Shown here piece after piece: positions 26,029 through 31,059 of a DNA stretch of 32,611 nt. The notes below the pieces were generated by a model, which worked only from the letters and a program-made list of their open reading frames with translations, made no database searches and was not told where the DNA came from. This DNA comes from Nitrospirota bacterium (GTDB lineage Bacteria > Nitrospirota > Thermodesulfovibrionia > Thermodesulfovibrionales > UBA1546). The stretch lies in the NCBI GenBank assembly GCA_026387575.1, contig JAPLLK010000035.1, forward strand, positions 1-32,611. The letters run 5' to 3'. Position 1 is the stretch's first letter. Each line of letters starts with the position of its first letter. Made by a program: the position numbers and the translations under genes.

Positions 26029-26886
26029 ATGAAGGATATAAAGTTTAATAAAGTCACTATTCTCGGCGTAGGCCTCATCGGCGCATCATTTGCCCTTGCC
26101 ATGAAGAAAAGAGGACTCTGTAATCACATTGCAGGGTACGGCAGAAGAGAAAATAACCTCAGGAAAGCAATGGATATGAAAATAATTGATTCTTTTGCGG
26201 TTGACGCATCAAAAGCATGCGCTGACTCTGACCTCGTTTTATTCGCTATTCCTGTCGGCTGTTTTACAGAAACTGTCAGAAAGATAAACGGCTCATTTAA
26301 AAAAGGCTCAATTGTAACAGATGTCGGCAGTGTCAAAGGAAAACTTGTCAGGGATATGGAAGCCCTGATGCCTGAAGGTGTAAGTTTCGTAGGAGGCCAC
26401 CCGATAGCAGGAAGCGACAGGACAGGGATAGCCACGGCAGCAGCGGATTTATTTTCAGGCGCAAGGTGCATATTAACACCAACGGAAAAGACGGATAAGG
26501 CTGCTCTAAAAAAAATCACCGCATTATGGAAGTCGCTCGGCGCAGCAGTTTCTGCTATGGATCCAGAGGAGCATGACAGGATATACGCTGCCGTAAGCCA
26601 CCTCCCTCATATTATTGCCTCTGCAATCGTCAATACAGTGGCTGATATAAACAACTCTTATCTTAAATTTGCAGGCCAGGGGTTTAAAGACACAACCCGG
26701 ATTGCGGCAAGCTCCCCTGAATTATGGCGCGACATATCCCTGATGAACAGAGAGAATATTCTTGAGTTCATAAAGCTTTTTAAAAAAAATCTCGACAGCC
26801 TCAGCGGTTACTTAAAGAAATCAGATTCTGAGGCTATTGAAAAGAAATTTAAAAAAGCCAAGGCGCTGAGGGAAGATGTCAGATAG
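26029..26886 (+). CDS. tyrA: Prephenate dehydrogenase
   Basis: [51 protein letters not shown]. Confidence 0.94.
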
Positions 26887-28168
26887 GATTGAATTAAAAA
26901 AAGCAAAAAGATTAAAGGGCGAAATCATTCCTCCGCCGGACAAATCCATATCTCACAGGGCAGTTATCCTCGCGTCTTTAGCAAAAGGCAAAAGCGTTGT
27001 CAGGAATTTTCTCAGAGCTGAAGATACAATGAGCACCCTTAATGCGTTCAGAAAACTTGGCATCAAAATAGAGGATAAAGGTAAAAAAATAATTATAGAG
27101 GGCAAGGGGATTCATGGTCTCAAGGAGCCCGCAGACATAATTGACTGCGGCAATTCAGGCACAACAGCAAGGCTTCTTTCAGGTATTCTTGCAGGGAATC
27201 CGTTTTTTTCCGTCCTTACAGGCGATGATTCTTTAAGGCAAAGACCCATGGCGAGGGTTATAAATCCCCTTAAAGAGATGGGAGCAGAGATTTCAGGAAG
27301 GGATAAAGGCAAATACCTGCCCATTGCAATTAGAGGCAAAAGGCTGAATGCCATAAACTATAATATGCCTGTTGCAAGCGCACAGGTCAAATCAGCACTG
27401 CTTCTTGCAGGTCTCTATGCAGACGGAGAAACAAAGATATCGGAGCCGATAAAATCCCGCGACCATACAGAGCGGATGCTGTCATCCTATGGAGTCAGGA
27501 TTGACATTGAAGGGCTCAAAATAAAGATTAAAGGCGGGCAGGAACTAAAAGCAAAAGATATGGATGTGCCCGGTGATTTTTCATCCGCAGCATTTTTCAT
27601 TGTAGCTGCACTGCTGATACCTGACTCTGATATAACGATAAAAGGCGTTGGCATAAATCCTACAAGAACAGGGCTGCTTGATGTCCTTAAAACAATGGGG
27701 GCAGATATAGAATTGACGAATATTAGAAATATCTCGGGCGAGCCTGTCGCCGACATACACTGTAAAGGAGGCAGAGGCTTAACGGCTGTAAATATAACAA
27801 AGGAACATATCCCTGCTCTTATTGATGAGTTCCCAATACTCTGCATTGCAGCAACACAGGCAGATGGTATGACCACAATACGCGGTGCGGAAGAACTCAG
27901 GGTTAAAGAATCAGACAGGATAAAGGCAATGGCAACCGACATGAGGAAGATGGGCGTAGAAGCAGAGGAACTCAGCGATGGAATAAGAATCAACGGCAAT
28001 GCAAATCTTAAAGGCGCATCCATAAACAGCTATGGAGACCATAGGATAACAATGGCATTTTCAGTTGCGGCATTGATTGCAAAAGGCAGAACTACAATAA
28101 ACGGAATATCGTCAGTGAACATATCATTCCCGGGATTTTTTGAGATGTTGAAAAGGTTAACACGCTGA
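26876..28168 (+). CDS. aroA: 3-phosphoshikimate 1-carboxyvinyltransferase (EPSP synthase)
   Basis: PPDKSISHRAVILASLAKG; DCGNSGTTARLLSGIL; GAEELRVKESDRI; GDHRITMAFSVAAL. Confidence 0.96.
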   Translation: MSDRIELKKAKRLKGEIIPPPDKSISHRAVILASLAKGKSVVRNFLRAEDTMSTLNAFRKLGIKIEDKGKKIIIEGKGIHGLKEPADIIDCGNSGTTARLLSGILAGNPFFSVLTGDDSLRQRPMARVINPLKEMGAEISGRDKGKYLPIAIRGKRLNAINYNMPVASAQVKSALLLAGLYADGETKISEPIKSRDHTERMLSSYGVRIDIEGLKIKIKGGQELKAKDMDVPGDFSSAAFFIVAALLIPDSDITIKGVGINPTRTGLLDVLKTMGADIELTNIRNISGEPVADIHCKGGRGLTAVNITKEHIPALIDEFPILCIAATQADGMTTIRGAEELRVKESDRIKAMATDMRKMGVEAEELSDGIRINGNANLKGASINSYGDHRITMAFSVAALIAKGRTTINGISSVNISFPGFFEMLKRLTR

Positions 28169-28275
28169 ATTTAGGAGAAAAGGGAATAATATTGAAGGGG
28201 AAATTGGGAGTGTTACATAATTGTGGGGAAAGCTTTGAAGAAGAAACATTGAATGAGAGTAGTAATTAGTTTATT

Positions 28276-29139
28276 TCACGTTCTGTAACGTATATAGTTG
28301 ATTCCTTCCAGTAAGGGTATAAAGGTTGCAGAAATATGCTCCTTCGGGAATTTGATATACTCACTTGATCCGAGTAATCCAGGCTGCAAAGTCACACATT
28401 CCTCAACCAATGGAAAGACGGGTGTGCCGATAGCACGTGAATATACGGCTTCATCTCGTATCCAAGCTGATTCCCCACTTTCAGAAATTAGATAAATACA
28501 GAAATCTATGTCAGCACGCAAGCTGTCTTCAACTTTTTCATTTATATTACGCGGTTGATAAGGCCTACCTGAAGTTGATATTACATTAATCAATGAAAGA
28601 AACTTTTGCAACTCTATTACATATGGTTCCGTTGCTTTATCAAAGCGGTATGATATAAAGCACTTTAACGGTCTATATCCTGATACTGGCTTGTGGTCTG
28701 TGCCCTCTGCACGGATAGGTTCAGATGCTTTTGATTGCTCCTCCTTAGGTGGAGGAGGTTCTAAAGATAAAGTTTTTTCAACAAAAGATGGAACGGTTTC
28801 GGCAAAACTATGTTTATCAAAAAAATAGTTAACATTAAAAGTATCTCCATATTGTCGAAACAGCATCAAATATAAATCATCTGGAAATCCAAGCACATTT
28901 AGATTTCGAAACCTTACGGACAGAGATCTGGGGCTTCCCTCAAATGATACAATCGTTGATAGATCATCCAGAGACAGATATTTGCTTTCAGTGCCAATAT
29001 TGCTCACATCGTAAGAAGCCGATATTCGTAAGTTAGACGGCTCGATACCAGCTTCTTTTGCGAGTCCAAGAACGGCTTGTTTCAAGGTCCCCACGTCAAG
29101 TTTGGGTAAAGAATATGATTTGGTCATCTCAATACTCAT
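28276..29139 (-). CDS. TIR-domain protein with uncharacterised N-terminal domain
   Basis: C-terminal KCFISYRFDKATEPYVIELQKFL...INEKVEDSLRADIDFCIYLISESGESAWIRDEAVYSRAIGTPVFPLVEE resembles a TIR fold, with a S-x-W-x3-E motif; Pro/Glu-rich linker; N-terminal ~125 aa unrecognised. Confidence 0.75.
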   Translation of the reverse strand: MSIEMTKSYSLPKLDVGTLKQAVLGLAKEAGIEPSNLRISASYDVSNIGTESKYLSLDDLSTIVSFEGSPRSLSVRFRNLNVLGFPDDLYLMLFRQYGDTFNVNYFFDKHSFAETVPSFVEKTLSLEPPPPKEEQSKASEPIRAEGTDHKPVSGYRPLKCFISYRFDKATEPYVIELQKFLSLINVISTSGRPYQPRNINEKVEDSLRADIDFCIYLISESGESAWIRDEAVYSRAIGTPVFPLVEECVTLQPGLLGSSEYIKFPKEHISATFIPLLEGINYIRYRT

Positions 29140-29257
29140 GTGGCATTTTATACAATTTAAGAAAAAATGTAAATTAGTTGGGGGTAGTCATTAATGGTAA
29201 TTTTCATAGATTATCACTCTCCTGATCTTCCCCCGATTTAACGGACACTGAGTTAAG

Positions 29258-29350
29258 TTAGGCTGCCATAGCCTCCAGCTCAAAAGATACCTGCGCTTGG
29301 GTCAGGTTCAGGTCTTGATTCTTGAAATAGAAGTACGAAGATGGTGTGGC
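29258..29350 (-). pseudogene. Possible IS transposase C-terminal remnant plus IS end
   Basis: Minus-strand translation ATPSSYFYFKNQDLNLTQAQVSFELEAMAA*, bounded by stops, followed by CTTAACTCAGTGTCCGTTAAATCGGGGGAAGATCA, which resembles an IS terminus. Confidence 0.4.
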
Positions 29351-29373
29351 TTAAAAATTGAAATGAAGAAATC

Positions 29374-31059
29374 CTATCCTCTCGTCAAATGCCTGTACTT
29401 GATGCGATGCGGCTGGTCTGCCGCTGCGCCGAGTCGCGTCTTTCTGTCCGCTTCGTATTCTGAATAATTCCCATCAAACCAGACTACTTTGCTGTCGCCT
29501 TCAAAAGCGATTATGTGTGTAGCAATACGGTCGAGAAACCATCTGTCATGGCTGATGACAACTGCGCAACCCGCAAAATACTCCAAAGCCTCTTCAAGCG
29601 CGCGCATTGTATTCACATCCAGATCATTGGTAGGTTCATCAAGCAAAAGCACATTGGCTTCTTCCTTAAGCATACGCGCAAGATGTACGCGGTTTCTCTC
29701 TCCGCCTGACAGCATGGAAGCTTTTTTCTGCTGATCGCTGCCGGAGAAGTTGAAGCGTGCAACATAGGCGCGCGAGTTGAACTGCCTCTTGCCAAGTTGA
29801 ACGACATCCAGCCCATCGGAGATAATCTCCCATATAGTCTTCTTTGGGTCGAGGTCGTCACGACTCTGATCTACGTATCCCAGCTTTACGGTTTCTCCAA
29901 TTTTGAATGTGCCTGAATCAGGCTTTTCCTTCCCGGTTATCATATGGAAAAGGGTGGTCTTCCCCGCTCCGTTCGGCCCGATTATGCCGACAATTCCTCC
30001 GGGTGGAAGGGAGAATGTCATGCCCTCCATAAGGATATTATCGCCGTATGCCTTGCTCACATTGTCAGCCTTGATGACTACGTCGCCAAGACGGGGACCC
30101 GGCGGGATATAGATTTCGAGATCCTTTGAACTTTTTTCAATATCTTGACTGAGGAGCCTCTCATAAGAAGTGATGCGCGCCTTGGCTTTTGCATGGCGTC
30201 CTTTGGGAGACATCCTTATCCACTCAAGCTCGCGCTGCAGGGTCTTCTGCCTTTCGCTTTCGGACTTCTCTTCCTGCTCAAGACGGTTCTTCTTCTGTTC
30301 CAGCCACGATGAGTAATTGCCTTTCCATGGAATCCCCTGTCCCCTGTCGAGTTCAAGAATCCATCCGGCGACATTATCGAGGAAATACCGGTCATGAGTC
30401 ACTGCAATAATAGTGCCGACGTAGTTTTTCAGATGGTGTTCCAGCCACGCCACTGTCTCGGCATCGAGGTGGTTGGTCGGTTCGTCCAACAGCAGGATAT
30501 CGGGCTTTTTCAAGAGGAGTCTGCAAAGCGCCACGCGCCGCCTTTCTCCTCCTGACAGCACTTTAACCGGTGTATCTCCATAAGGACAACGCAGGGCATC
30601 CATGGCCATCTCAAGACGCGAATCTATATCCCATGCATCCATTGCATCGAGTTTCTCCTGTACTTTTCCCTGACGTTCAATAAGCTTGCTCATTTCATCG
30701 TTAGACATCGGCTCTGCGAATTTTTCATTAATCAGGTTATACTCTTTGAGAGTATTAACTATCTCCTGCACGCCTTCTTCCACGATCTCACGCACTGTCT
30801 TGCTGTTATCAAGCTGCGGCTCCTGCTCAAGGAGACCTATGGTGTGTCCAGGCGACAGGACTGTCTCGCCGTTGAACTCTTTATCAACTCCTGCAAGAAT
30901 GCGGAGAAGCGAGCTCTTCCCTGATCCATTCAGTCCGAGGACGCCTATCTTTGCCCCGTAGAAATAGGAGAGATAGATATCTTTTAAAACCGTTTTGTTA
31001 TCATGATGCTTGCTTACTCCGACCATGGAGTAAATTACCTTATTCGGCTCGCTGCTCAT
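29374..31059 (-). CDS. ettA: ABC-F protein, EttA-like energy-dependent translational throttle
   Basis: Two ABC domains (GLNGSGKSS...LSGGERRRVALCRLLL; GPNGAGKTT...LSGGERNRVHLARML) with the arm/linker typical of EttA. Confidence 0.93.
   Translation of the reverse strand: MSSEPNKVIYSMVGVSKHHDNKTVLKDIYLSYFYGAKIGVLGLNGSGKSSLLRILAGVDKEFNGETVLSPGHTIGLLEQEPQLDNSKTVREIVEEGVQEIVNTLKEYNLINEKFAEPMSNDEMSKLIERQGKVQEKLDAMDAWDIDSRLEMAMDALRCPYGDTPVKVLSGGERRRVALCRLLLKKPDILLLDEPTNHLDAETVAWLEHHLKNYVGTIIAVTHDRYFLDNVAGWILELDRGQGIPWKGNYSSWLEQKKNRLEQEEKSESERQKTLQRELEWIRMSPKGRHAKAKARITSYERLLSQDIEKSSKDLEIYIPPGPRLGDVVIKADNVSKAYGDNILMEGMTFSLPPGGIVGIIGPNGAGKTTLFHMITGKEKPDSGTFKIGETVKLGYVDQSRDDLDPKKTIWEIISDGLDVVQLGKRQFNSRAYVARFNFSGSDQQKKASMLSGGERNRVHLARMLKEEANVLLLDEPTNDLDVNTMRALEEALEYFAGCAVVISHDRWFLDRIATHIIAFEGDSKVVWFDGNYSEYEADRKTRLGAAADQPHRIKYRHLTRG

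What the first reader, a model, noticed from the sequence alone, without database searches (positions are those of the whole stretch)
28276..29139. Lone TIR-domain protein with unknown N-terminal domain
The C-terminal half resembles TIR domains (FISYR start; SAWIRDE matching the S-x-W-x3-E region where the NADase glutamate lies in catalytic TIRs). It is linked by a Pro/Glu-rich segment to an unrecognised ~125-aa N-terminal domain. Many bacterial TIR proteins are antiphage effectors, but no recognised partner (Thoeris, Pycsar/CBASS, pAgo, SIR2) is adjacent. The N-terminal domain could be a new sensor, so a single-gene defence system is possible.
Basis: partly seen in the sequence, partly recalled or inferred. 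Interest (0 to 1): 0.62.

Follow-up and report, generated by a model that had tools for sequence, protein, structure and literature searches.

The report
Lone TIR protein, probable phage defence
This gene encodes a probable NAD-cleaving TIR protein with an unrecognised front domain, carried as swappable cargo in a bacterial chromosome; it most likely works like the known one-gene phage-defence protein SpbK but with a different sensor.

Summary
[quoted passage not shown] Pfam TIR_2 is sub-threshold (16.1 bits). AlphaFold2 nevertheless gives a TIR topology, with human SARM1 TIR as the top PDB hit. A family profile finds SARM1 and a bona fide TIR protein, and W226-x3-E230 aligns with SARM1's catalytic glutamate. 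Relatives are few and patchy: 5 full-length in 231 genomes of the class, none in seven other genomes of the genus, plus one Chlorobiales MAG. The gene has the lowest GC3 in the window and abuts an IS3-family relic. It sits between aroA and an ABC-F gene, where three sister genomes carry other cargo: ORF6N plus a toxin-antitoxin pair, DUF2971, or Fic plus a HEPN-like gene. This supports an acquired accessory defence or toxin gene. Best reading: a one-gene, SpbK-like abortive-infection TIR NADase with an unrelated sensor. The sensor domain appears alpha/beta by weak evidence and has no match in Pfam. It diverges much faster than the TIR. NADase activity, defence and trigger are inferred, not shown. 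New variant of a known kind; moderate interest.

The parts
28276..29139 (-). TIR-protein gene, 287 aa, single gene
   Evidence: single copy in its genome; full-length profile hits in 5 of 231 class genomes
28765..29139 (-). N-terminal domain, residues 1-125, proposed sensor
   Evidence: No Pfam family; AF2 pLDDT below 50 over nearly all of it; topology alpha-beta-alpha'-beta-beta-beta-alpha proposed from crude secondary structure shared with relatives: weak
28678..28764 (-). Pro/Glu-rich linker, residues 126-154
   Evidence: read from translation; unstructured in model
28279..28677 (-). TIR domain, residues 155-287
   Evidence: AF2 block means 48-88 with TIR topology; Foldseek SARM1 E 4.6e-5; profile to SARM1
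28450..28470 (-). SAWIRDE motif with W226 and putative catalytic E230
   Evidence: W and E invariant in nine aligned TIR domains; aligned to SARM1 DWVHKE
29145..29173 (-). sigma-70-like promoter match TTTACA-17-TAAAAT just upstream of the start codon
   Evidence: 10 of 12 matches; number of matches in the region is at chance level, so weak
29223..29291 (-). right end of an IS3-family element, including the tail of its OrfB transposase (SFELEAMAA stop)
   Evidence: 69 bp repeated at 90-94 percent in several family genomes, 9 copies in G004 and 13 in G010; in G006 it is the 3' end of an IS3-type OrfB ORF
28213..29302 (.). segment specific to this genome between conserved aroA-side and ABC-F-side flanks (approximate bounds)
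   Evidence: flank matches to sister genomes stop at about 28212 and resume at about 29303

Best explanation
A horizontally acquired single-gene anti-phage protein. The N-terminal domain binds a phage-derived trigger. Binding clusters the C-terminal TIR domains, which then cleave NAD+ using E230, causing abortive infection. Shown here: TIR fold and conserved glutamate (computational), N-terminal domain plus linker plus TIR architecture, foreign cargo context, patchy distribution. Inferred: NADase activity, trigger binding by the N-terminal domain, clustering, defence.
For: TIR topology and SARM1, SPARTA and TIR-STING as PDB fold matches. W-x3-E invariant in nine TIR domains; the profile puts this E on SARM1 E642, and the score falls from 21.7 to 17.2 bits for the E642A chain 7cm7 against wild-type 7cm5. 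Rare and patchy family. GC3 0.312 against 0.440 (sd 0.049) for 29 other genes in the window. IS3-family relic next to the gene. Same interval in sister genomes holds ORF6N plus Gp49/HTH, DUF2971, or Fic, matching PADLOC candidate models PDC-S05 and PDC-S31 and SoFic. A relative, L011, lies between a Phd/ParE-type pair and a HigBA-type pair (names of the toxins and of HigBA by eye). N-terminal domain diverges faster than TIR (38 against 62 percent mean identity). [quoted passage not shown]).
Against: No experiment. P0001 itself has no PADLOC hit. Single-sequence TIR_2 score is below the Pfam cut-off. N-terminal fold unresolved. Toxins and regulators also travel in such intervals. W-x3-E occurs in some TIRs whose NADase activity has not been shown.
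Confidence: 0.58

Rival explanations
1. A Thoeris-ThsB-like signalling TIR: it makes a cyclic ADP-ribose isomer that activates an effector encoded elsewhere in the genome, instead of depleting NAD+ itself.
For: One family member matches PADLOC ThsB at E 4.5e-4; some TIRs produce cyclic ADPR isomers (literature, e.g. PMC10022894 abstract).
Against: No neighbouring effector gene here or conserved in relatives. ThsB is typically adjacent to ThsA (own knowledge). The own-genome search for the STALD domain of ThsA was negative but uninformative, because controls did not ring either.
Confidence: 0.15
2. A toxin or regulator unrelated to phage, for example one half of a toxin-antitoxin or stress module.
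For: Neighbouring cargo types in sister genomes include TA and Fic genes.
Against: No antitoxin-like partner ORF next to it; architecture matches a sensor-linker-TIR protein.
Confidence: 0.15
3. A TIR-fold protein that no longer cleaves NAD+, or a scaffold-only TIR.
For: Distant sequence; sub-threshold TIR_2 score.
Against: W226 and E230 are invariant across nine diverged TIR domains, six family members plus three outgroups; intact ORF.
Confidence: 0.12

Closest known systems
SpbK (Bacillus subtilis ICEBs1)
   Same: Single gene on mobile or accessory DNA; N-terminal domain, flexible linker, C-terminal TIR; similar size (266-267 aa against 287 aa; relatives 261-266 aa)
   Different: SpbK's N-terminal domain is a four-helix bundle that binds the YonE portal (PMC12847820); here the N-terminal domain appears alpha/beta and its trigger is unknown. 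No sequence-level link to SpbK surfaced in the PDB sequence searches.
SARM1 TIR domain (catalytic NADase)
   Same: Top structural and profile match; W-x3-E active-site motif aligned
   Different: SARM1 is an animal protein with ARM and SAM domains; about 17 percent identity in the fold alignment
SPARTA TIR-APAZ and TIR-STING/Pycsar TIR effectors
   Same: TIR fold matches in PDB
   Different: No APAZ, pAgo, STING or cyclase partner found next to the gene
Thoeris ThsB
   Same: TIR domain; one family member has a weak PADLOC ThsB match
   Different: No ThsA-like neighbour; extra N-terminal domain

Membership tests
TIR domain superfamily | Five-stranded flavodoxin-like TIR fold | tested here: met
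   AF2 strands and helices in TIR order at pLDDT mostly 60-88; Foldseek top hit SARM1 TIR
TIR domain superfamily | Pfam TIR_2 above the curated cut-off | tested here: not met
   16.1 bits against 28 for P0001; 18.8 for the domain alone; linked instead through the family profile
Catalytic TIR NADases | Glutamate at the SARM1 E642 position | tested here: met
   E230 aligned and invariant
Catalytic TIR NADases | NAD+ cleavage | not testable with these tools
   needs an enzyme assay
SpbK | N-terminal domain, linker and C-terminal TIR in one gene | tested here: met
   literature
SpbK | N-terminal four-helix bundle binding phage portal | tested here: inconclusive
   low-confidence models and crude secondary structure suggest strands, not a helical bundle; binding not testable
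Thoeris | ThsB TIR beside ThsA effector | tested here: not met
   neighbours are aroA and ABC-F; genome-wide STALD search uninformative
CBASS/Pycsar TIR effectors | cyclase partner and nucleotide-sensor domain | tested here: not met
   no adjacent cyclase; N-terminal domain matches no Pfam sensor
SPARTA | TIR-APAZ with short pAgo | tested here: not met
   no pAgo neighbour and no APAZ hit

The most novel reading that the evidence does not exclude
A previously undescribed family of one-gene TIR NADase defences, found in Nitrospirota and Chlorobiales, that pairs a conserved TIR with a fast-diverging alpha/beta sensor domain not seen in SpbK or other known TIR systems.
Probability: 0.45. Interest if true: 0.55.

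Novelty: new variant of a known kind. Interest (0 to 1): 0.42.

Why it matters
How bacterial TIR proteins sense phage is known for few cases (for example SpbK with a portal protein, and staphylococcal Thoeris with capsid). A compact TIR protein with a different, fast-changing N-terminal domain offers another sensor to pair with a trigger, and the aroA/ABC-F interval offers a small cargo site in which to look for more defence candidates in uncultured Nitrospirota.

Tried and rejected
Direct Pfam, PADLOC, NCBIfam, PHROGs and PDB sequence searches with P0001 gave only sub-threshold TIR_2 and a chance ABC_trans_N stretch. Phage, plasmid and viral-contig searches found no relatives. Profile comparison of N-terminal domains between P0001, L011 and the L010/L012 group gave no detectable similarity (hhalign probability about 0.2 percent or less), so a common origin of these N-terminal domains is a topology-based guess only. 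Two AlphaFold2 runs left the N-terminal domain unresolved; no fold search was run for it because the model is meaningless there. DUF6602 (NucC/PD-DExK-like) beside L010 was considered as a partner and rejected: it is not next to the other relatives. TRADD-N was considered from memory and not tested.

Full report
What is there. The gene lies on the minus strand at 28276-29139 and encodes 287 aa. It is the only copy in its 1.63-Mb draft genome. Relatives with public names indicate Nitrospirota (L011, GWC2_42_7; L010, BMS3Bbin05). It stands alone between aroA (26876-28168, plus strand) and an ABC-F ATPase gene (29374-31059, minus strand) beside an otherwise ordinary aromatic amino acid gene cluster.

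TIR identity. Pfam TIR_2 reaches only 16.1 bits over residues 161-266. Stronger support comes from elsewhere. AlphaFold2 with four sequences gives a beta-alpha TIR-type succession over 158-286 (block-mean pLDDT 48-88) while the N-terminal part stays almost entirely below 50. Foldseek ranks human SARM1 TIR first, and SPARTA, TIR-STING and other TIRs follow, along with a few unrelated flavodoxin-like folds. A TIR-only profile of the six family members ranks SARM1 first in the PDB at E 0.011. Adding three more distant TIRs gives 2.3e-5, but that set includes L005, a TIR itself found by this query, so it is partly circular. The family profile independently retrieves L005/L018, a clear TIR_2 protein, at E 3.5e-10. 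W226 and E230 are invariant in nine aligned TIR domains and align to SARM1 DWVHKE. The SARM1 E642A chain scores 17.2 bits against 21.7 for wild type, which places the profile's glutamate on E642.

N-terminal domain. Residues 1-125 match no Pfam family. Three groups of relatives (this protein; L011; the L010/L012/L003/L004 group) carry N-terminal domains of similar length that are not detectably similar between groups. A crude secondary-structure estimate and the low-confidence models suggest the same order, alpha-beta-alpha'-beta-beta-beta-alpha; this is a lead, not a result. Within the best-aligned group the N-terminal half averages 38 percent identity and the TIR half 62 percent, the pattern expected for a sensor under changing selection, though relaxed constraint would look the same.

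Distribution. Full-length profile matches occur in 5 of 231 genomes of the class, none in seven other genomes of the genus, and one Chlorobiales MAG (L012). The phylum and Bacteroidota samples added only TIR-half matches, the best at E 1.6e-18. No relative was found in phage, plasmid or viral-contig collections.

Genomic context. In sister genomes the aroA to ABC-F interval holds different genes: ORF6N with a Gp49/HTH pair (L032), a small membrane-like protein and DUF2971 (L033), Fic and a protein that is HEPN-like by eye (L034); in L036 aroA is followed directly by cmk. Several match PADLOC single-gene candidate models or SoFic. Conserved flank sequence stops near 28212 and resumes near 29303. 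The 69-bp stretch 29223-29291 is the end of an IS3-family element that is multicopy in relatives and in G006 is the 3' end of an OrfB ORF (the IS3 family name is by eye from the OrfB sequence). GC3 of the gene is 0.312, the lowest of 30 window genes, whose others average 0.440 with sd 0.049. The upstream promoter-like match (29173-29145) is at the chance rate.

Mechanism. By analogy with SpbK, whose N-terminal domain docks on the phage portal and clusters the TIR domains into active NADase assemblies (PMC12847820, PMC11984713), the simplest model is trigger binding by the N-terminal domain, TIR clustering, NAD+ cleavage through E230 and abortive infection. The TIR fold, the glutamate, the architecture and the cargo context are supported by the computations above; the enzyme activity, the trigger and the defence phenotype are inference.

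Verdict. It is a new variant of a known kind (a single-gene TIR defence candidate) and its unusual part is the unrecognised N-terminal domain. The weak points are the unresolved N-terminal fold and the absence of any functional data.

Noticed in passing
window 28169-29373; L032, L033, L034: The aroA to ABC-F interval carries different accessory genes (TIR, ORF6N plus TA, DUF2971, Fic plus HEPN-like) in different genomes of one genus: a small cargo hotspot.
   Followed up: partly
window 29223-29291; L052: Relic of the right end of an IS3-family element; the same end is multicopy in relatives, often at contig ends.
   Followed up: partly
L010 4564-5496: DUF6602 protein with NucC/PD-DExK-like PADLOC matches directly upstream of the TIR relative, same strand.
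   Followed up: partly
L011 3658-6100: TIR relative lies between a Phd/ParE-like pair and a HigBA-like pair (type II toxin-antitoxin modules; only the Phd antitoxin tested by Pfam).
   Followed up: partly
L008, L019, L021: Large (about 640-690 aa) Nitrospirota proteins with an N-terminal TIR-like domain (S-x-W-I-x-Q-E) followed by what looks like TPR repeats.
   Followed up: no
L034 417-1616: In G002 the roughly 40-bp sequence that follows aroA elsewhere is displaced to after the Fic gene, suggesting insertion right behind the aroA stop codon.
   Followed up: no
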